Part shown: positions 6,544 to 14,249 of the stretch, one piece after another
Numbering within the stretch: the stretch's first letter is position 1
Layout: each line of letters starts with the position of its first letter
Assembly: GCA_009920715.1 (NCBI GenBank)
Contig: RFZO01000005.1
Span: 1 to 32,111, forward strand
Origin: Actinomycetota bacterium
GTDB lineage: Bacteria; Actinomycetota; Acidimicrobiia; Acidimicrobiales; Ilumatobacteraceae
Direction: 5' to 3'
DNA length: 32,111 nucleotides
Notes under the pieces: model-generated
What the model was told of the DNA's origin: nothing
The model's database searches: none
Seen by the model: only the letters and a program-made list of their open reading frames with translations
Made by a program: the position numbers and the translations under genes

Positions 6544-6589
6544 CTGCGAAAATGGCCCCCGCGCCGCCGTGGCGCGACTGGGGGACACC

Positions 6590-7801
6590 ATGCCGTTGGA
6601 ACTTGATTTCGGACCCGCCGCCGAGGCCTTCCGCACCGAGGTGCGCGCCTGGCTGGAGGCGAACAAGCCCGCCGAGCTCGTCGGTGTGAATGCCGACGAG
6701 GCACAGCGCGGCCAGCACCCCGCACTCAGCGCGTGGGCGAAGAAGCTGACCGAAGCCGGCTACATGTGCGTCGGATGGCCGAAGGAGTACGGCGGCCGCG
6801 GTCTCACCGGCGTGGAGGTGGCGGTGCTGAACGAGGAGTTCGCCCGCGCGAATGTCCCGCGCATCACGCGGGGCATGGGGGAGTGGCTCGTGGGCCCGTC
6901 CATCATCGTGTGGGGCACCGAGGAACAGAAGCGTCGCTTCCTGCCGCGCATCGTCGACGGCACCGACCGGTACTGCCAGGGCTTCTCGGAACCCGACGCG
7001 GGATCCGACCTCGCGTCGCTGAAGACGCGCGGCGTCATCGACGGTGACGAGGTGGTCATCACCGGCCAGAAGGTGTGGACCTCTGGTGCCACGGAGGCGA
7101 ACATGATGTTCTGCCTGTGCCGCACTGACCAGGACGCCCCGAAGCACGCCGGCATCTCCTACGTGCTGCTCCCGATGTTCAAGGAGGACAAGTCGACGAA
7201 CGGCATCGAGCTGCGCCCGATCCGTCAGCCGCACGGGGCGTCGCACTTCACCGAGACATTCCTCACCGAGTCGCGGGCACCCGTCGACAACATCATCGGC
7301 GGCATGAACAACGGCTGGCGCGTCACCATGACCACCCTCGGCAACGAGCGCGGCGGGAACGCCACCACCCAGCACGTCGAGTTCACCAAGCAGTTCTGGG
7401 CCGCCGTGAAGATGCTGCAGGCCTCCGGCAAGGCGAAGGACCCGTTGATCCGCCAAGAGCTGGCCTGGGCCTACAGCCACGTGGAGATCATGCGGTTCAA
7501 CGGCCTGAAGGTGCTGTCCGAGGTGATCGCACGCAAGGAGCCGGGTCCCGGCGCGTCGGTGAACAAGATGTTCTGGTCGGAGTACGCCCAGAAGTTCTCG
7601 GAGCGCATGATGAACGCCCGCGGCGCCGACGCGATGCTGGCGGCCAACGAGCCCGGCCAGCCCTTCGCGGTGGACCGCTGGACGTCGATGTTCTTCCAGC
7701 ACCGTTCCTCCACGATCTGGGGCGGCACCGCGCAGGTGCAGCGCAACATCGTGGGCGAGAGGGTGCTGGGGCTCCCGAAGGAGCCGGGCCAGAAAGGCTG
7801 A
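6590..7801 (+). CDS. Acyl-CoA dehydrogenase family protein
   Basis: MPLELDFGPAAEAFRTEVRAWLEANKP...QGFSEPDAGSDLASLKTRGVIDGDEVVITGQKVWTSGA...SSTIWGGTAQVQRNIVGERVLGLPKEP. Confidence 0.95.
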   Translation: MPLELDFGPAAEAFRTEVRAWLEANKPAELVGVNADEAQRGQHPALSAWAKKLTEAGYMCVGWPKEYGGRGLTGVEVAVLNEEFARANVPRITRGMGEWLVGPSIIVWGTEEQKRRFLPRIVDGTDRYCQGFSEPDAGSDLASLKTRGVIDGDEVVITGQKVWTSGATEANMMFCLCRTDQDAPKHAGISYVLLPMFKEDKSTNGIELRPIRQPHGASHFTETFLTESRAPVDNIIGGMNNGWRVTMTTLGNERGGNATTQHVEFTKQFWAAVKMLQASGKAKDPLIRQELAWAYSHVEIMRFNGLKVLSEVIARKEPGPGASVNKMFWSEYAQKFSERMMNARGADAMLAANEPGQPFAVDRWTSMFFQHRSSTIWGGTAQVQRNIVGERVLGLPKEPGQKG

Positions 7802-7820: not shown

Positions 7821-8507
7821 TCACATCTCCTCTTCGGCGTCCTTGCCGGTCTCGAAGAAGTCCTTCGCGTCGGTCTGCATGCCCATGCGCTTCTTGTCAC
7901 GGAAGTTCATGGTGGCGCGTGACATCGACCGCATCGCCGCGCGTGAGTTCATGGCGTCGGCCTTCCACGCAGACGTGGCGCCCTGGTCGTAGCCGAAGCG
8001 GGCGGCGTCGGCGTACGCATCCAGTCCGGCAGAGAGGAACACGAACTGCCATCCGTCGGCCGTGCGCTCCGCGATCAGGTTGCGCACCTGCTCGAGGTTG
8101 TATTCGTGGGACTGGTTCTCCTCACCGTCGGTGATGGTGACGAAGATGATGTCGTCCTTCGGCCGGCCGGTGGCCACGCGCGCCTGCTGGTCGACCATGA
8201 CCCGCCCGATCGCGAGTCCGGTGGCGTCCAGCAGGGGAGTGCCGCCCCGCGGAACGTACGAGTGGCGGTCGAGAGAGACCGCCTCCGAGATGGGTGCCCC
8301 CCAGACGACCACCTCCTGGGGATCCTGCGAGTCGAACAGGATGATCGAGATGCGGGCGTCAGAGCCGTTCTGCTGCTGCTCGGTGAGGAAGGTGTTGAAC
8401 CCGCCGATCACGTCGTTGACGATTGACGACATCGACCCCGACCGGTCCAGGAGGACCGCGATGTGGGTGCCGTTCGCTGCGGGCTGGTGGTTGGTGTTCT
8501 GTGTCAT
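7821..8507 (-). CDS. von Willebrand factor type A (VWA) domain protein with intact MIDAS motif
   Basis: THIAVLLDRSGSMSSIVNDVIGGFNTFL (DxSxS), VPRGGTPLLDATG (Thr), FVTITDGEENQS (Asp); ATG 8507 with AAGGAG upstream. Confidence 0.9.
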   Translation of the reverse strand: MTQNTNHQPAANGTHIAVLLDRSGSMSSIVNDVIGGFNTFLTEQQQNGSDARISIILFDSQDPQEVVVWGAPISEAVSLDRHSYVPRGGTPLLDATGLAIGRVMVDQQARVATGRPKDDIIFVTITDGEENQSHEYNLEQVRNLIAERTADGWQFVFLSAGLDAYADAARFGYDQGATSAWKADAMNSRAAMRSMSRATMNFRDKKRMGMQTDAKDFFETGKDAEEEM

Positions 8508-8523
8508 GAGTGTCTCCTTGTCT

Positions 8524-8549
8524 CTCAACCCCGACCGTCGGGGTTTGAG
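8524..8549 (-). promoter_or_regulatory. Stem-loop in the 5' leader of the VWA gene (11 bp, one bulge, 3-nt loop)
   Basis: Plus strand CTCAACCCCGA-CCG-TCGGGGTTTGAG; no U-tract, so not a classical intrinsic terminator; lies just 5' of the VWA RBS. Confidence 0.6.
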
Positions 8550-8565
8550 TAAAGGACACTATAAC
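8543..8565 (-). promoter_or_regulatory. Candidate operator/promoter dyad 1 (GTTATAGT-GTCCTTT-ACTCAAAC on minus strand)
   Basis: 23-bp imperfect dyad, same layout as the dyad at 9434-9456; contains TATAGT -10-like box upstream of the VWA gene. Confidence 0.55.
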
Positions 8566-8576
8566 CAGAACGTGTG

Positions 8577-9323
8577 TCAATCCTTCCGGGGTGACGACCG
8601 GAACCGGATGGGGGGTGTGATCTCCTTGGCTCTGCCCGCCCGGTACAGCATGGGGGGCCGGCCGGGTGTGGGCTGGTCGGAGGACATCACCCCGAGGGGC
8701 TGGACGAAGTTCTTGGTGAGCTCGACCTTGCGCCGGAAGTTGGCCGCGTCGACCTCGTCCTGGAGGAAGGCCTCATAGACCATCCTCAGGTCCGACATGG
8801 TGAACTTGGGCTGGCAGAAGCTGACGGCAATGGGGGTGTCCTCCAGCATGGAGAATGCCCGTGCCCTGGCATCAGCGATGATGCGGTGGTGGTCGAACTC
8901 CAGCACCCTTGAGGCCTGAAGCTGCCGGTAGGGCATGAACCGGGCCTCGACGGAGTGCTTGATGGGTGCGATCTCGCCGGGGTGGGGCAGCAGGGCCAGA
9001 TAGGCGATGGAGAAGGCCCTCCAGCGACTGTCCCGCCCGGGGTCGCCGTAGGCACCCACCTGGTGGAGGTCCTTGTGACGCAGGCTTATGCCAGTCTCCT
9101 CGTGCACTTTCCGCAGGGCGGTGTCCTCCAGGGGTTCCCCCTCCTTGACGGCGCCGCCGGGGAGCGCCCACCTGTTGGAGGAGGCATCAGGTCGGCGCAT
9201 CACCAGCACCTCGAGGCGGTCCTTCGGGGCGATCTCGCGGTCCGGGTTCACGGTCAGCACGACCGTGTCGACATAGACGTAGAAGTCCATCTGGATTTTT
9301 CTCTCGTGCTTCGGCATGCCCAC
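8577..9323 (-). CDS. nrtR: Nudix-domain transcriptional regulator, NrtR-type (Nudix + C-terminal winged HTH)
   Basis: Nudix fold WALPGGAVKEGEPLEDTALRKVHEETGI with altered REUXEE box, then wHTH-like FTMSDLRMVYEAFLQDEVDAANFRRKVELTKNFVQPLG...MLYRAG. Start may be 9323 or the internal Met at 9290. Confidence 0.85.
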   Translation of the reverse strand: MGMPKHERKIQMDFYVYVDTVVLTVNPDREIAPKDRLEVLVMRRPDASSNRWALPGGAVKEGEPLEDTALRKVHEETGISLRHKDLHQVGAYGDPGRDSRWRAFSIAYLALLPHPGEIAPIKHSVEARFMPYRQLQASRVLEFDHHRIIADARARAFSMLEDTPIAVSFCQPKFTMSDLRMVYEAFLQDEVDAANFRRKVELTKNFVQPLGVMSSDQPTPGRPPMLYRAGRAKEITPPIRFRSSPRKD

Positions 9324-9433
9324 AGTGTGCCACCCCCGGGTGTCATGTTTGGGTCAAAGGCTCCCTTTTCGACGTTCGGGTGGCCGGAGACGCGGGAATA
9401 ACACGGATACGGGCCTTGTTCACACACCCCTCC

Positions 9434-9456
9434 GTTATAGTGCGGAGTACCTAAAC
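9434..9456 (+). promoter_or_regulatory. Candidate operator/promoter dyad 2 (GTTATAGT-GCGGAGT-ACCTAAAC)
   Basis: Shares 16/23 positions with dyad 1 including GTTATAGTG; TATAGT -10-like box upstream of the DraG-DSP gene, in the divergent region with nrtR. Confidence 0.55.
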
Positions 9457-9494
9457 CCCCGGCCCCGGCCGGACCGATTGCCCACAGGAGCCCA

Positions 9495-10982
9495 ATGACC
9501 ACTGATTCCACCCGTTCCCCCCTCAGCCCGCACCGCGCCTCGTACACCCAGCAATTCCGGGCGGTCGGAGCACTCCTCGGGGCCGCAATCGGCGACGCCC
9601 TCGGTGCCCCCTTCGAGTTCAAGGCGGGAGGACTGTTCAGCGCCAGGTTCCCCGAACCCGTCATCGGCGGTGTGGGCGAGATGATCGGCGGTGGCGGATT
9701 CGGATGGGCCCCCGGTGAGTTCACCGACGACACCCAGATGGCCATGGCACTCGCGGAATCACTCATCAGGAACGACGGGCTGGACCTTGACGACTTGTGG
9801 GAGCGTTTCCGTGCGTGGGCCCAGTCGGCCAAGGACGTGGGCATCGTCACCAGCATCGTGTTGTCCCGCGATTCCCGCCACGGCGCGGCCGAGCACGGGC
9901 ACGAGGCCACCAACGGTCGCAGCGCCAGCAACGGGTGCGTGATGCGCGTGGCGCCCGTCGGCATCATCGGGGCGCGCCTGGGCTCGGACAGCACAATTGC
10001 GCTGGCTGCCGAACAGGCCCGCCTGACCCACTTCGACCCCGCCGCCGCCGTCGGGGCTGCGCTCGTGGCCGAGCTGATCCGGCACATCATCGTCACCGGC
10101 GAGTTCCGGGGGGTCGCCGAGGCCGTTCTCGACAGGTTCGCCGCGGAGGGTCATTTCGACGCTGCCGTCGTGGACGGGTACAGACCATTCGTGGCCGGGT
10201 CGTTCGACCCGCTCGCGCCGGGACTGCCCGGCAACGGTTCCGTGTGGACCACGGTCGGCCAGGCGCTGTGGGCCGTGCGCACCACGTCCACGTTCGAGCA
10301 GGCGATGCGCACCGTGATCGATCTTGGCGGCGACACTGACACGGTTGCAGCTGTCACCGGCAGCATCGCGGGCGCTCTCCACGGCGTGCAGCGCATTCCC
10401 GTGCGCTGGACCACCTACGTGCACGGGTATCTCCGCATGCCCGACGGCAGCCAGAAGGAGTACCGCATGCAGGACCTGATCGACGTCGCACGGATGCTCG
10501 TCGGCAAGGAGACATCGCGCATGTCGTACGTGGAGCCGCCCGTCGGGCCCCTGAAGGTGCACCCTGACGGCGTCCACGCGGCGAACCTCGACGGTGCGGC
10601 TCGCGCACCGCGCGACCACGCGGTGGTCACGCTGTGCATGCCCGAGGACAGGTTCCTCCAGCACGTCAACCGGCGCCAGATCTTCATCCGTGACAAGGAG
10701 AACCCCGCCAACGAGGACCTCCTGTTCGTCGTCCGCGACGCGGTGGAGGCGATCGATGCGTTCCTCGCCGAGGGCCGCGAGGTCGTCGTGCACTGCCACG
10801 GCGGCCGCAGCCGCACCGGGCTGGTGCTGAAGGCCTGGTACATGTCGCGTCACGGTGCGAGCCACGACGAGGCGCACGCATGGCTGCGCGGCAGGTGGGA
10901 GCACTACGAGACGTGGACCCAGTCCTTCTGGGATTTCCTGGAGGACGAGTGGACCGCGCACGTTGCGGGGAAGAGGGCCTGA
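9495..10982 (+). CDS. ADP-ribosylglycohydrolase (DraG family) fused to C-terminal dual-specificity/tyrosine phosphatase-like domain
   Basis: DraG motifs GAAIGDALGAPFEF, FTDDTQMAMAL and DLGGDTDTVAAVTGSIAGALHG; C-terminal PTP loop VVVHCHGGRSRTG (HCx5RT); RBS AGGAG at 9486-9490. Confidence 0.9.
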   Translation: MTTDSTRSPLSPHRASYTQQFRAVGALLGAAIGDALGAPFEFKAGGLFSARFPEPVIGGVGEMIGGGGFGWAPGEFTDDTQMAMALAESLIRNDGLDLDDLWERFRAWAQSAKDVGIVTSIVLSRDSRHGAAEHGHEATNGRSASNGCVMRVAPVGIIGARLGSDSTIALAAEQARLTHFDPAAAVGAALVAELIRHIIVTGEFRGVAEAVLDRFAAEGHFDAAVVDGYRPFVAGSFDPLAPGLPGNGSVWTTVGQALWAVRTTSTFEQAMRTVIDLGGDTDTVAAVTGSIAGALHGVQRIPVRWTTYVHGYLRMPDGSQKEYRMQDLIDVARMLVGKETSRMSYVEPPVGPLKVHPDGVHAANLDGAARAPRDHAVVTLCMPEDRFLQHVNRRQIFIRDKENPANEDLLFVVRDAVEAIDAFLAEGREVVVHCHGGRSRTGLVLKAWYMSRHGASHDEAHAWLRGRWEHYETWTQSFWDFLEDEWTAHVAGKRA

Positions 10983-10986
10983 CACC

Positions 10987-12420
10987 GTGATCGACATCAT
11001 GGAGGCCGAGGAGGCGGTGCTGTCCTACCTCGACAAGATCGCCTGCATCGACACCGACATCGACGAGTTCGGCGAGGAGTCCGAGCCGTCCTTCCCGTTG
11101 CGCTTCATCACGCACGAGAACGCAGTCACCTGCACGGCCACTCTCTACACGCGCTTCAACGGTGCGGTGGTGCTGCGGATCGATGCCGACGTGGCGGAGA
11201 CCGACGACAGCGCGTCGATCCGCCAGTGGGCCCTCGACGCTCCCGGTCAGTTGCCCTACGTGCAGATCCGCTACGAGCGCGATTCCGGGGCGGGCAGGGC
11301 CAGGCTCACGGCGACCCACTCACTGTCCGTCGACCATCTCTCGCGGTTCGTGCTGGAGCAGGTGGTGTCCTCGTTCGACTTCATCGTGCCCCAGTGGGTC
11401 ACGAAGGCCGGGCAGGTGGAGGCAGTGGCGGAGATGAACGCCCAGCGCCAGCGCCAGCGCATCGAGGACGCCGCCCGGGCCGGCGCGGAGGAGGACCACA
11501 GCGACGACTCCGAGGACCCGTTCGGCCTCGACGAGGACGCACCCACCACCGCGACAACCGTGCACGAGGCGAAGGGAATCGACGCTGTCCTGTCCGAACT
11601 GGCGGCGCTCATCGGTCTCGAACCCGTGAAGAGGCTGGTGCGCGATCTCGCCCACGTGCAGCAGGTCGCCTCCCTGCGCGAGCGGGCCGGGCTGAGGCCG
11701 TTGCGTCCGTCGCCGCACCTGGTGTTCACGGGCAACCCCGGCACGGGGAAGACCACCGTGGCGCGTCTCATCGGGCGTCTCTACAAGGAGATGGGACTTC
11801 TCCGCCGGGGGCACGTGGTGGAGACCGGCCGGCAGGGATTGATCGGCGGCTACGTGGGGCAGACGGCCATCAAGACCGCCGAGGTGCTGAAGTCGGCGGA
11901 GGGCGGTGTGCTGTTCATCGACGAGGCGTACTCCCTCGCGGTCGGACACCATCTCGACTACGGCAAGGAGGCCATCGAGACGATCCTCGCCCACATGGAG
12001 AACCACCGCGGCGAGATCGCGGTGGTGGTGGCGGGATACCCGGACAAGATGAAGGACTTCCTCGCCATGAACCCGGGCCTCGCCAGCCGCTTCGACCACA
12101 CGCTCCAGTTTCCCGACTTCTCGAACGAGGAGCTCGTGGAGGTGTTCGAGCTGTTCGCGTCCGCGCACGATTACGTCGTCACCCCCGCCGCCCGACAGCA
12201 CCTCGCCGCACTCGTGCGCAGGTGGCCCCGGTCGGCCACGTTCGCGAACGCACGCGAGGTGCGCAAGCTCTTCAACGACGTGGTGATGCTGCACTCGGCT
12301 GCAGTGGTGGAGGGCGGCATGAGCCTCGGCACGGGGCTCGTCGAGATTCATCCCTGTCACTTCCCCGAGGAGAACGGGTTGGTGGGGGCGGGTTCGTCCC
12401 GCCGTTTCGGCTACGTCTGA
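10987..12420 (+). CDS. AAA+ ATPase, CbbX/SpoVK/EccA-like, with an additional N-terminal domain (possibly YbjN/secretion-chaperone-like)
   Basis: Walker A GNPGTGKTTVARL, pore-loop-like GLIGGYVGQT, Walker B GGVLFIDEAYSL, Arg finger region GLASRFDHTLQFPDFS; GTG start 4 bp after the preceding stop (or ATG 10999). Confidence 0.9.
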   Translation: MIDIMEAEEAVLSYLDKIACIDTDIDEFGEESEPSFPLRFITHENAVTCTATLYTRFNGAVVLRIDADVAETDDSASIRQWALDAPGQLPYVQIRYERDSGAGRARLTATHSLSVDHLSRFVLEQVVSSFDFIVPQWVTKAGQVEAVAEMNAQRQRQRIEDAARAGAEEDHSDDSEDPFGLDEDAPTTATTVHEAKGIDAVLSELAALIGLEPVKRLVRDLAHVQQVASLRERAGLRPLRPSPHLVFTGNPGTGKTTVARLIGRLYKEMGLLRRGHVVETGRQGLIGGYVGQTAIKTAEVLKSAEGGVLFIDEAYSLAVGHHLDYGKEAIETILAHMENHRGEIAVVVAGYPDKMKDFLAMNPGLASRFDHTLQFPDFSNEELVEVFELFASAHDYVVTPAARQHLAALVRRWPRSATFANAREVRKLFNDVVMLHSAAVVEGGMSLGTGLVEIHPCHFPEENGLVGAGSSRRFGYV

Positions 12421-12491: not shown

Positions 12492-14249
12492 GTGCGAACC
12501 GGTGCGATCAGGCGGCTTGACGAACGTCTGCATCCCCGCGGGGATGCTGTCGCCGGCACCGCATCAGGAGCACTACAGCGAAGAGTTGTCCTCGCGGCGG
12601 CCGCCGTGGCCGGGTTGGTGTCCCTCATGGTGGCACTGCGTCAGCACGGACCCACGGTGCACCCTGACGAGTGGGGTTTCCTGCTGAACGGTCGGGTGAT
12701 CATGGGGCATTCCGAGGCCCAGATCCCCACCGGCAGCTTCTACCCGGCCGGGTTCGGCTTGGTCACGGGTCCGCTCGCCGAGATCACCGGCTCGCTGGCC
12801 GGCGCCTACAGGGGGACACTGATCGTGAACTTCCTGCTGTGCGTGCTGGTGGGGGTGACCGCTCACCGTGTGGCGCGCCGGGTGTTCGGGGCGGGGGAGA
12901 CCACGGCCACGGTTGCAGGGGCACTCGCGTTCGTCGTGCCCGGCACCATCGTGACGAGCCTGTTCGCATGGCCCGAGACGGCCGCCCGTCTCGCGTTCCT
13001 GCTGTTCGTGCTCGGCTTCCATTCAGTCGCGCGCGACAGGCGGCCCGCCAGGATGATCGTCCTCGGTTTCGCGGTGGGGCTCATGCCGGCACTGCACGGC
13101 AGGTTCACGCTGGTGCTGCCGGTTGTCTGCCTGGTGTTTTTGGCGTGGGGGCTGAGACGGGATGTGTCCCGCGTCGCGGCGGTCACCGCGTGCGCGGCGA
13201 CAACCGCGGGATACGTGCTCAGTTACCTGCTGAACAGGTTCGTGAAAGGGGCGCTGTACGGGGCCTCCTACGACCAGGAGAACAGGTTGCTGCGCAGGCT
13301 GGTCGACCCGTCGCTGTGGCCCGCCCTCCTGCGCACGATGACCGGCCAGAGCTGGTACCTGGTGGCAACCTCGGGCGGTCTCGTGGCCGTGTCCGCGGCG
13401 TGGATGGTGTCGCGGGTGCGCGCCGAAGGCGGCCTGCGCACGGTCCGCACCGATGCGGCACGGTTGACGTGCCTCGTGGTGGTGGCGAACACGCTGCTCC
13501 TCGTGTTCACCGGCGGACTGCAGCTGCTCTTCGGCAACCGCGGTGACCACCTCATCTACGGGCGGTACGTGGAGATACTCGTGCCCGTGCTCATCGTCGC
13601 CGGGTGCGCGGCTCTCGAGCATTCGAGGCTGCTCTCGTTGAGGGCGTGGCTGGCGGGCTCAGTTGCCATCGTGGGTGTGGCCCTTCTGTACGTGCTCATC
13701 GACATGGGTGACGGTGTGAAAGGGGGATGGTCCCGCAACGACATCGTCTTCCCGAACATCGTCGGCACCGACGCGATGCGCTACCTCGTCACCCCCGGGC
13801 TGGTCACCTTCGGCATCGCGTTCGCGCTCGCGGGCGCGGTGCTGTGGTGGGTGTTCCGGAGGGGCGGCATGTGGGCACCCGTGCTGATGGTCGTGCTCCT
13901 CGCCGCGGGGTCGTCGTGGTCCGCGCAGCGCAGCATCTTCAGCCGAACCGACGACCTGCGCGCGACCAAGGCCACGGTGGAGTTTGTGCGGCAGTCAGGA
14001 GGCACGCTGATCGGGTTCGACGAGGGGGTCCGTAACGACCGCTCGTACTACTACCTGCGCTACAAACTGCACCCGGTGGCCCTCGTCAGGTTCGACATCT
14101 CGGGACCCGACGCCGTCATCCCGGCTGAGTACTCGTGCGTGTACGGCTTCCCGAACAAGCCCCCGTCGGACGGGGAGTGGCGCATCGTCGCCGATGAGAT
14201 ACCCCTCAAACGGGTACTGTGGCAACGGACCGGCACCGACCGTTGTTGA
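12492..14249 (+). CDS. Polytopic membrane protein, GT-C glycosyltransferase-like
   Basis: GTG start; many hydrophobic segments; N-terminal LRQHGPTVHPDEWGF loop with acidic residues reminiscent of GT-C proteins. Confidence 0.7.
   Translation: MRTGAIRRLDERLHPRGDAVAGTASGALQRRVVLAAAAVAGLVSLMVALRQHGPTVHPDEWGFLLNGRVIMGHSEAQIPTGSFYPAGFGLVTGPLAEITGSLAGAYRGTLIVNFLLCVLVGVTAHRVARRVFGAGETTATVAGALAFVVPGTIVTSLFAWPETAARLAFLLFVLGFHSVARDRRPARMIVLGFAVGLMPALHGRFTLVLPVVCLVFLAWGLRRDVSRVAAVTACAATTAGYVLSYLLNRFVKGALYGASYDQENRLLRRLVDPSLWPALLRTMTGQSWYLVATSGGLVAVSAAWMVSRVRAEGGLRTVRTDAARLTCLVVVANTLLLVFTGGLQLLFGNRGDHLIYGRYVEILVPVLIVAGCAALEHSRLLSLRAWLAGSVAIVGVALLYVLIDMGDGVKGGWSRNDIVFPNIVGTDAMRYLVTPGLVTFGIAFALAGAVLWWVFRRGGMWAPVLMVVLLAAGSSWSAQRSIFSRTDDLRATKATVEFVRQSGGTLIGFDEGVRNDRSYYYLRYKLHPVALVRFDISGPDAVIPAEYSCVYGFPNKPPSDGEWRIVADEIPLKRVLWQRTGTDRC

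What the first reader, a model, noticed from the sequence alone, without database searches (positions are those of the whole stretch)
7821..12420. Candidate ADP-ribose-linked system: NrtR-type regulator, VWA protein, DraG-phosphatase fusion and CbbX-like AAA+ ATPase
Four adjacent genes unrelated to the surrounding catabolic and glycan genes. Sequence shows: VWA with intact MIDAS, Nudix-wHTH regulator, ADP-ribosylglycohydrolase fused to a Cys-dependent phosphatase, and a CbbX/SpoVK/EccA-like AAA+ ATPase with an unusual N-terminal domain. Established: NrtR-family regulators sense ADP-ribose-type ligands and control NAD metabolism; AAA+ ATPases often partner with VWA proteins (MoxR-VWA, CbbQ-CbbO); DraG-family enzymes remove ADP-ribose. 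Inference: ADP-ribose level derepresses a module in which an ATPase-VWA remodelling pair acts on ADP-ribosylated or phospho-ADP-ribosylated targets that the DraG-DSP enzyme processes. No ADP-ribosyltransferase is visible in the window, so the modifying enzyme or trigger would be elsewhere or foreign (toxin or phage).
Basis: partly seen in the sequence, partly recalled or inferred. Interest (0 to 1): 0.82.

Follow-up and report, generated by a model that had tools for sequence, protein, structure and literature searches.

The report
Swappable ADP-ribose-removal gene cassette with chaperones
Four genes in a freshwater actinobacterium form a real, rapidly changing cassette that probably strips ADP-ribose tags from the cell's own molecules after attack by viruses or toxins; the class was already predicted in 2022, but the protein-remodelling motor found here appears to be a new part of it.

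Summary
7821-12420 encodes a MIDAS VWA protein, an NrtR-type Nudix-winged-helix regulator with a degenerate Nudix box, a DraG-type ADP-ribosylglycohydrolase fused to a Cys phosphatase (catalytic residues invariant in 73 homologues), and a CbbX-clade AAA+ ATPase. The ATPase's 'unusual N-terminal domain' models as a TY (YbjN / type III secretion) chaperone. The four genes are a unit. Within one genus they occupy one chromosomal slot (acyl-CoA dehydrogenase / membrane glycosyltransferase) that is empty, or holds 2, 3 or 4 of them. Subsets also recur at unrelated loci; one has DraG, a TY-like AAA and a Macro domain. This is a member of the 'ARG-centric' predicted anti-ADP-ribosylation systems of Iyer et al. 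2022 (PMC9503650), so the core idea is not new. What I did not find described is the TY-chaperone-AAA+ fusion and the slot with its intermediates. Best mechanism: NrtR senses ADP-ribose and derepresses; DraG removes ADP-ribose; DSP processes a terminal phosphate; VWA and TY-AAA bind and remodel modified clients. All biochemistry is inferred. New variant of a known (predicted) kind.

The parts
7821..8507 (-). VWA-domain protein (228 aa), MIDAS intact (DRSGS, T, D)
   Evidence: the same gene follows NrtR in L031, L034-L036, L148, L164, L165, L185-L187
8543..8563 (-). operator-like site over the VWA promoter (TATAGTGTCCTTTACTCAAAC)
   Evidence: best hit in the 32-kb window of a motif learned from relatives without the window, 18.7 bits; suggestive only
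8577..9317 (-). NrtR-type regulator: Nudix sensor with degenerate Nudix box (RK..EE in place of RE..EE) + NrtR winged helix
9318..9494 (.). divergent promoter region NrtR / DraG-DSP
9347..9369 (+). second, weaker operator-like site (GTTTGGGTCAAAGGCTCCCTTTT)
   Evidence: 9.7 bits; about 5% of shuffles of the same region reach this
9495..10982 (+). DraG-type ADP-ribosylglycohydrolase (aa 25-303, TDDT77-80, TH178-179, DTD280-282) fused to DSP/rhodanese-fold phosphatase (aa 390-469, D400, HCxGGxSR 433-440)
10987..11481 (+). N-terminal TY-chaperone (YbjN/CesT/SycH-like) domain of the AAA+ protein
   Evidence: AlphaFold2 pLDDT 89, Foldseek top PDB hits are YbjN / T3SS chaperones
11482..11571 (+). 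disordered linker
   Evidence: pLDDT < 50 at aa 166-195
11572..12420 (+). CbbX/SpoVK/EccA-clade AAA+ module (Walker A GNPGTGKT, Walker B VLFIDEA, sensor-1 AGY, NPGLASRF)
6569..7801 (+). left border of the slot: acyl-CoA dehydrogenase (not part of the module)
12492..14249 (+). right border of the slot: PMT-like membrane glycosyltransferase (not part of the module)

Best explanation
The four genes are one inducible module that undoes ADP-ribosylation inflicted from outside the operon. NrtR, whose Nudix site is degenerate and so is probably a sensor rather than an enzyme, represses both divergent units (NrtR-VWA and DraG-DSP-AAA). Free ADP-ribose or a close derivative, released when host molecules have been modified, lifts repression. 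DraG removes ADP-ribose from its acceptors; the fused Cys phosphatase removes a terminal phosphate from the released sugar nucleotide or acceptor. The VWA protein and the TY-chaperone domain of the AAA+ protein bind modified or misfolded client proteins, and the CbbX-type ring remodels them so that DraG can reach them or so that they refold. Shown by sequence and structure models: domain identities, intact active sites, gene linkage, slot, rapid change. Inferred: ligand, substrates, regulation, client remodelling and the antiviral or antitoxin purpose.
For: DraG and DSP catalytic residues are 100% conserved in 73 homologues. NrtR lies next to DraG-DSP at many loci with different flanks, from Acidimicrobiia to Geodermatophilaceae, often with ARPP-1 (PF20208) or an HD phosphohydrolase, as in the published ARG-centric systems. 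TY-AAA follows DraG-DSP in the slot, at L115 and at L145/L147; an AAA with a divergent TY-like N-domain follows a stand-alone DraG beside a Macro gene at L177. The same slot is empty or holds NrtR+VWA, NrtR+VWA+DraG-DSP, NrtR+DraG-DSP+AAA, or all four. Module proteins diverge faster (mean identity 63-70%, TY domain 51%) than acyl-CoA dehydrogenase (84%) and GT2 (88%). N-domain fold is that of peptide-binding chaperones. Characterised members of the AAA clade are dedicated chaperones with variable N-domains (PMC10659427).
Against: No activity, ligand or phenotype has been measured. The full four-gene set was seen only in the window, L031 and (split over contigs) G668, all in one slot. AAA and VWA are often absent, so neither is essential to the core. 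DraG relatives elsewhere sit beside PnuC or a NadR-like gene (L010, L015), which fits NAD metabolism. The adjacent glycosyltransferase is also fast-evolving (56%), so divergence is not unique to the module. Operator evidence is weak. Co-occurrence tests do not correct for relatedness.
Confidence: 0.55

Rival explanations
1. Metabolite housekeeping: the module clears or recycles small ADP-ribose derivatives (ADP-ribose-1''-phosphate, cyclic forms, damaged NAD) under NrtR control, with no role in protein or nucleic-acid ADP-ribosylation. DraG cleaves and DSP dephosphorylates the same small molecule.
For: The DraG-phosphatase fusion suits a two-step small-molecule route. NrtR classically controls NAD genes. 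DraG relatives sit next to PnuC (L010) or a NadR-like gene (L015).
Against: Does not explain VWA and TY-chaperone-AAA+ partners, the slot turnover, or faster divergence than the flanks. No NAD-synthesis gene adjoins the module in the window.
Confidence: 0.2
2. Dedicated activator: TY-AAA works like CbbX or SpoVK on one specific partner, most simply DraG-DSP itself or VWA, pulling off a tight inhibitory product such as a sugar phosphate, rather than remodelling modified clients in general.
For: CbbX (40% identity over the AAA+ module) strips an inhibitory sugar bisphosphate from Rubisco; clade members act narrowly on dedicated targets (PMC10659427). DraG-DSP and AAA are 4 bp apart in the window.
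Against: DraG-DSP stands without AAA in most genomes (43 vs 26 of 199, overlap 11), and TY-AAA occurs beside NrtR and a sigma-like gene without DraG-DSP (L151-L159).
Confidence: 0.15
3. Neighbours by chance: four unrelated genes that drifted together in one lineage.
For: The full set is restricted to one slot in one genus in the data here.
Against: Subsets recur at unrelated loci (L115, L148, L177, L145/L147). The slot is either empty or filled with subsets of exactly these genes. DraG/VWA 22 vs 7.3 expected, p = 1e-9; DraG/AAA 11 vs 5.6, p = 0.009 (not corrected for relatedness).
Confidence: 0.03

Closest known systems
ARG-centric predicted anti-ADP-ribosylation systems (Iyer, Burroughs, Anantharaman, Aravind 2022, PMC9503650, section 3.8)
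   Same: ARG domain fused to a rhodanese-phosphatase-superfamily domain, Nudix-HTH (NrtR-like) regulator, vWA chaperone, TY-chaperones, no coupled ADP-ribosyltransferase, rapid evolution with variable parts, present in actinobacteria
   Different: Here the TY-chaperone is fused to a CbbX-clade AAA+ ATPase; the paper's main text contains no 'AAA' (its figures could not be viewed). The single-slot states, including an empty site, are not in the text read.
CbbX / SpoVK / EccA clade of AAA+ chaperones (PMC10659427)
   Same: AAA+ core 40% identical to CbbX; lid, Walker motifs and GY sensor-1 present
   Different: N-terminal domain is a TY-chaperone (EccA has TPRs, SpoVK a short unique domain); scores below all three equivalog cut-offs; linked to ADP-ribose genes, not Rubisco, sporulation or T7SS
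NrtR regulators of NAD metabolism (e.g. MsNrtR, PMC6800001)
   Same: Nudix + winged helix, FDH and NFRRK-type motifs, divergent promoter
   Different: No adjacent NAD-synthesis operon; first Nudix-box Glu replaced; NCBIfam NrtR equivalog 67 bits vs cut-off 400; mycobacterial operator GTTTTCGA-N7-TCGAAAAC not seen in the printed intergenic sequence
DraT-DraG
   Same: DraG catalytic fold and residues
   Different: No DraT seen in the window, fused phosphatase, chaperone partners; TIGR02662 scores 129 vs cut-off 337
MoxR-VWA and CbbQ-CbbO motor pairs
   Same: An AAA+ and a VWA in one module
   Different: AAA+ is CbbX-type, VWA is a small single-domain protein in the opposite transcription unit, no significant AAA-VWA co-occurrence

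Membership tests
ARG-centric system (PMC9503650) | ARG (DraG-type) domain with intact metal site | tested here: met
   PF03747 9e-64; T77 D78 D79 H179 D280 D282 100% in 73 sequences
ARG-centric system (PMC9503650) | rhodanese-phosphatase-superfamily phosphatase fused or adjacent | tested here: met
   DSPc 2e-10, Tc-R-P 3e-8; C434, R440, D400 100%
ARG-centric system (PMC9503650) | Nudix-HTH or WYL regulator | tested here: met
   NUDIX + NrtR_WHD, divergent from DraG-DSP at many loci
ARG-centric system (PMC9503650) | vWA / TY / SseB chaperone partner | tested here: met
   VWA; TY fold
ARG-centric system (PMC9503650) | no genomically coupled ADP-ribosyltransferase | tested here: inconclusive
   none among the window genes annotated; DarT and KptA not found in the 89.7%-complete genome; other ART families not searched
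ARG-centric system (PMC9503650) | rapid evolution and exchangeable modules | tested here: met
   slot states, identity contrast
ARG-centric system (PMC9503650) | protects against viral ADP-ribosylation | not testable with these tools
   a prediction in the paper; no experiment found in the papers searched
NrtR (NAD regulator) | Nudix + NrtR winged helix | tested here: met
NrtR (NAD regulator) | adjacent NAD biosynthesis or salvage operon | tested here: not met
   annotated neighbours are module or catabolic/glycan genes
CbbX/SpoVK/EccA AAA+ clade | AAA+ core of this clade | tested here: met
   profile hits CbbX 6.5e-83 and EccA1 7e-65; Foldseek CbbX 5.6e-22, 40% id
CbbX, SpoVK or EccA proper | NCBIfam equivalog cut-off | tested here: not met
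   CbbX 240/459, SpoVK 256/423, EccA 214/467 bits
TY-chaperone superfamily | alpha-beta(3)-alpha-beta(2)-alpha fold matching YbjN / T3SS chaperones | tested here: met
   (TM about 0.5-0.57, prob about 1.0, E about 2e-3; none below 1e-3, moderate strength)
MoxR-VWA / CbbQ-CbbO pair | MoxR-type AAA+ with co-occurring VWA | tested here: not met
   AAA+ clade; VWA/AAA p = 0.13
Catalogued antiphage system (PADLOC 2.0.0) | match to a known defence protein | tested here: not met
   only weak generic hits
DraT-DraG | linked DraT | tested here: inconclusive
   no DraT among annotated neighbours; whole genome not searched for it

The most novel reading that the evidence does not exclude
The TY-chaperone-AAA+ protein is a remodelling machine dedicated to ADP-ribosylated clients: the TY domain, the fastest-changing part, recognises modified or misfolded proteins and the CbbX-type ring pulls them open so that DraG (or Macro) can strip the ADP-ribose. 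It would be an ATP-driven partner of ADP-ribose erasers.
Probability: 0.25. Interest if true: 0.82.

Novelty: new variant of a known kind. Interest (0 to 1): 0.55.

Why it matters
The 2022 prediction of host systems that undo foreign ADP-ribosylation appears untested in the papers I could search. This locus gives a compact version, plus a natural series of the same chromosomal slot holding none, two, three or four of the genes in related genomes, so each gene's contribution can be tested. It also adds a motor: a TY-chaperone fused to a CbbX-type ATPase beside ADP-ribose erasers, which raises the testable idea that some ADP-ribosylated proteins must be remodelled before the tag can be removed.

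Tried and rejected
Known defence systems: PADLOC gave only generic AAA/Nudix hits. MoxR-VWA pair: rejected on clade and co-occurrence. Endogenous toxin-antitoxin with DarT, or RNA repair with KptA: neither family found in the genome, which is incomplete. Phage origin: no phage record holds most of DraG-DSP; only ARG-domain hits below 35% identity in the rows shown; plasmid relatives shown are mostly ARG-only or about 30% identical across the fusion. Viral-contig scans failed twice for technical reasons. Single-sequence search with the TY domain across the phylum found almost nothing; the 7-sequence profile was needed. No sigma-70 promoter passed the consensus scan. Rodionov 2008 (the original NrtR regulon paper) not held. 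Searches failed on wrong reading frames of mine.
Full report
WHAT IS THERE. The window is one whole contig (G000:C335) of a 2.48-Mb actinobacterial MAG, 89.7% complete. One same-genus genome has a contig identical in length to a record titled Ilumatobacteraceae (G586:C10 and JAJTEL010000002.1, both 556,739 bp). Genes: VWA 7821-8507(-), NrtR-like 8577-9317(-), DraG-DSP 9495-10982(+), AAA+ 10987-12420(+). The AAA+ start is taken at GTG 10987, 4 bp after the DraG-DSP stop, because homologues start at the same place; the longer ORF from 10855 is not needed. Pfam and NCBIfam confirm the identities of three proteins; the VWA is below Pfam's cut-off but has an intact MIDAS. Flanks are luciferase-like monooxygenases, enoyl-CoA hydratase, alpha/beta hydrolase and acyl-CoA dehydrogenase on the left and a PMT-like protein, GT2 and pyruvyl transferase on the right.

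ACTIVE SITES. In 73 full-length DraG-DSP homologues the ADP-ribosylglycohydrolase residues T77 D78 D79, T178 H179, D280 and D282 and the phosphatase residues D400, H433 C434, S439 and R440 are 100% conserved, so both halves are under selection as enzymes. The regulator's Nudix box reads G-x5-E-x7-RK-V-x-EE-TG, with K in place of the first catalytic E; close relatives have RK or RI. That favours a sensor that has lost hydrolysis, as known for the NrtR family (general knowledge), but ligand binding is untested.

THE 'UNUSUAL N-TERMINAL DOMAIN'. Modelled alone from a 7-sequence alignment it is confident (pLDDT 89, pTM 0.83), and the top Foldseek hits in the PDB are YbjN, AmyR, SycH, SchA, VecA, CesT and ExsC (prob about 1.0, TM 0.5-0.57, E about 2e-3 to 2e-2): the TY-chaperone superfamily. 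No hit is below E = 1e-3, so this is a consistent but moderate match. The full model shows TY domain, disordered linker (166-195), AAA+; the AAA+ matches CbbX at 40% identity and the profile finds CbbX and EccA1 in the PDB. The clade's characterised members are narrow, dedicated chaperones with varied N-domains; the text of that paper does not mention TY/YbjN domains (PMC10659427).

A SLOT WITH INTERMEDIATE STATES. In relatives of the same genus the genes between acyl-CoA dehydrogenase and the PMT-like protein vary while the borders stay: none (L184, where the borders are about 0.2 kb apart or less); VWA+NrtR (L164, L165, L185); VWA+NrtR+DraG-DSP (L034-L036, L186, L187); NrtR+DraG-DSP+AAA (L032, L033=L142, L050=L143); all four (window, L031; G668 split over L144 and L170). 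Mean pairwise protein identity: acyl-CoA dehydrogenase 84%, hydrolase 81%, GT2 88%; NrtR 70, VWA 67, AAA+ core 65, DraG-DSP 63, TY domain 51. The PMT-like border gene is also fast (56%), so speed alone does not mark the module. The direction of change (gain or loss) was not reconstructed.

RECURRENCE ELSEWHERE. NrtR<->DraG-DSP-AAA sits at an unrelated site with photolyase and rhodopsin-like neighbours (named from the printed sequences) and a broken VWA remnant (L115). AAA<->NrtR-VWA without DraG, next to a NERD helicase, is in L148. DraG-DSP-AAA is in L145/L147. In L177 a stand-alone DraG is followed by an AAA with a divergent TY-like N-domain (hhalign E 0.0017, probability 15%, hence weak) and faces MerR and Macro genes (Macro 2.4e-36). 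NrtR<->sigma-like-TY-AAA recurs in another genus (L151-L159). In Geodermatophilaceae the partners are NrtR, ARPP-1 and an HD phosphohydrolase. Over 199 genomes of the family: DraG-DSP in 43, VWA in 34, TY-AAA in 26; DraG/VWA overlap 22 (7.3 expected, p 1e-9), DraG/AAA 11 (5.6, p 0.009), VWA/AAA 7 (4.4, p 0.13); within the genus p = 0.006, 0.03, 0.31. These tests ignore relatedness and MAG incompleteness, and the three searches used different E-value limits.

REGULATION. A 21-bp partly palindromic motif was found by Gibbs sampling upstream of DraG/AAA and of VWA; the total score exceeded simple base shuffles, but many inputs are homologous promoters, which inflates it. Built without the window and scanned over 32 kb, its best site is 8543-8563 in the VWA promoter (18.7 bits); 9347-9369 in the NrtR-DraG region scores 9.7, reached by about 5% of shuffles. 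I regard control of both units by NrtR as likely but not shown.

PRECEDENT. PMC9503650 section 3.8 predicts 'ARG-centric' systems: ARG plus rhodanese-phosphatase domain, Nudix or WYL regulator, vWA and TY chaperones, ARPP, HD phosphatase, Macro, REases and helicases, acting against viral ADP-ribosylation. The window meets every defining feature that could be tested conclusively; the absence of a coupled transferase is only partly tested. The main text has no 'AAA'; figures and supplements were not available, so an AAA+ member could be drawn there. An experimental paper shows that hydrolases of several families reverse RNA ADP-ribosylation and that PARG can protect against an ART toxin (PMC11833690), which makes the general idea credible without testing this module.

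MECHANISM AND RIVALS. Best reading: inducible reversal of foreign ADP-ribosylation with client remodelling (0.55). Rivals: small-molecule ADP-ribose housekeeping (0.2; note DraG relatives beside PnuC and a NadR-like gene), dedicated activation of a single partner by TY-AAA (0.15), chance neighbours (0.03). Whether the attacker is a phage or a bacterial toxin cannot be told from these data. DarT and KptA were not found in the genome; other transferase families were not searched.

VERDICT. Real, coherent, and largely foreseen by a published prediction; the TY-chaperone-AAA+ fusion and the stepwise slot are the additions. New variant of a known kind, interest 0.55.

Noticed in passing
L177:6705-10331: Second locus in a same-genus genome: stand-alone DraG, AAA+ with a divergent TY-like N-domain, convergent MerR regulator and Macro-domain protein; none of the searched window-flank genes present.
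   Followed up: partly
L053:5406-7764, L149, L150, L157, L062, L056: A sigma-70-region-4-like protein and/or a 250-320-aa protein with no Pfam match recur beside TY-AAA or DraG-DSP; possibly an alternative regulator pair to NrtR.
   Followed up: partly
L151-L159: In another genus of the family NrtR is divergent from a sigma-like gene plus TY-AAA, without DraG-DSP.
   Followed up: partly
G700:C27, G676:C78, G682:C20 (L187): The VWA gene match contains one TAG in three genomes; not resolved whether it is a pseudogene, readthrough, or an end-of-gene effect.
   Followed up: no
L115:10226-10486: Remnant of the VWA gene (contains a stop) behind NrtR at an unrelated site, suggesting that VWA was once linked there too.
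   Followed up: partly
L010, L015: Distant DraG genes next to PnuC (with NrtR) or to a NadR-like protein, a link to NAD salvage.
   Followed up: no
window 12492-14249: The PMT-like membrane glycosyltransferase bordering the slot is itself unusually variable (56% mean identity) compared with its neighbours.
   Followed up: no
L038, L045, L079, L061: Records titled Bifidobacterium breve or Planctomicrobium piriforme MAGs carry DraG-DSP loci like those of Acidimicrobiia; the titles are probably wrong.
   Followed up: no
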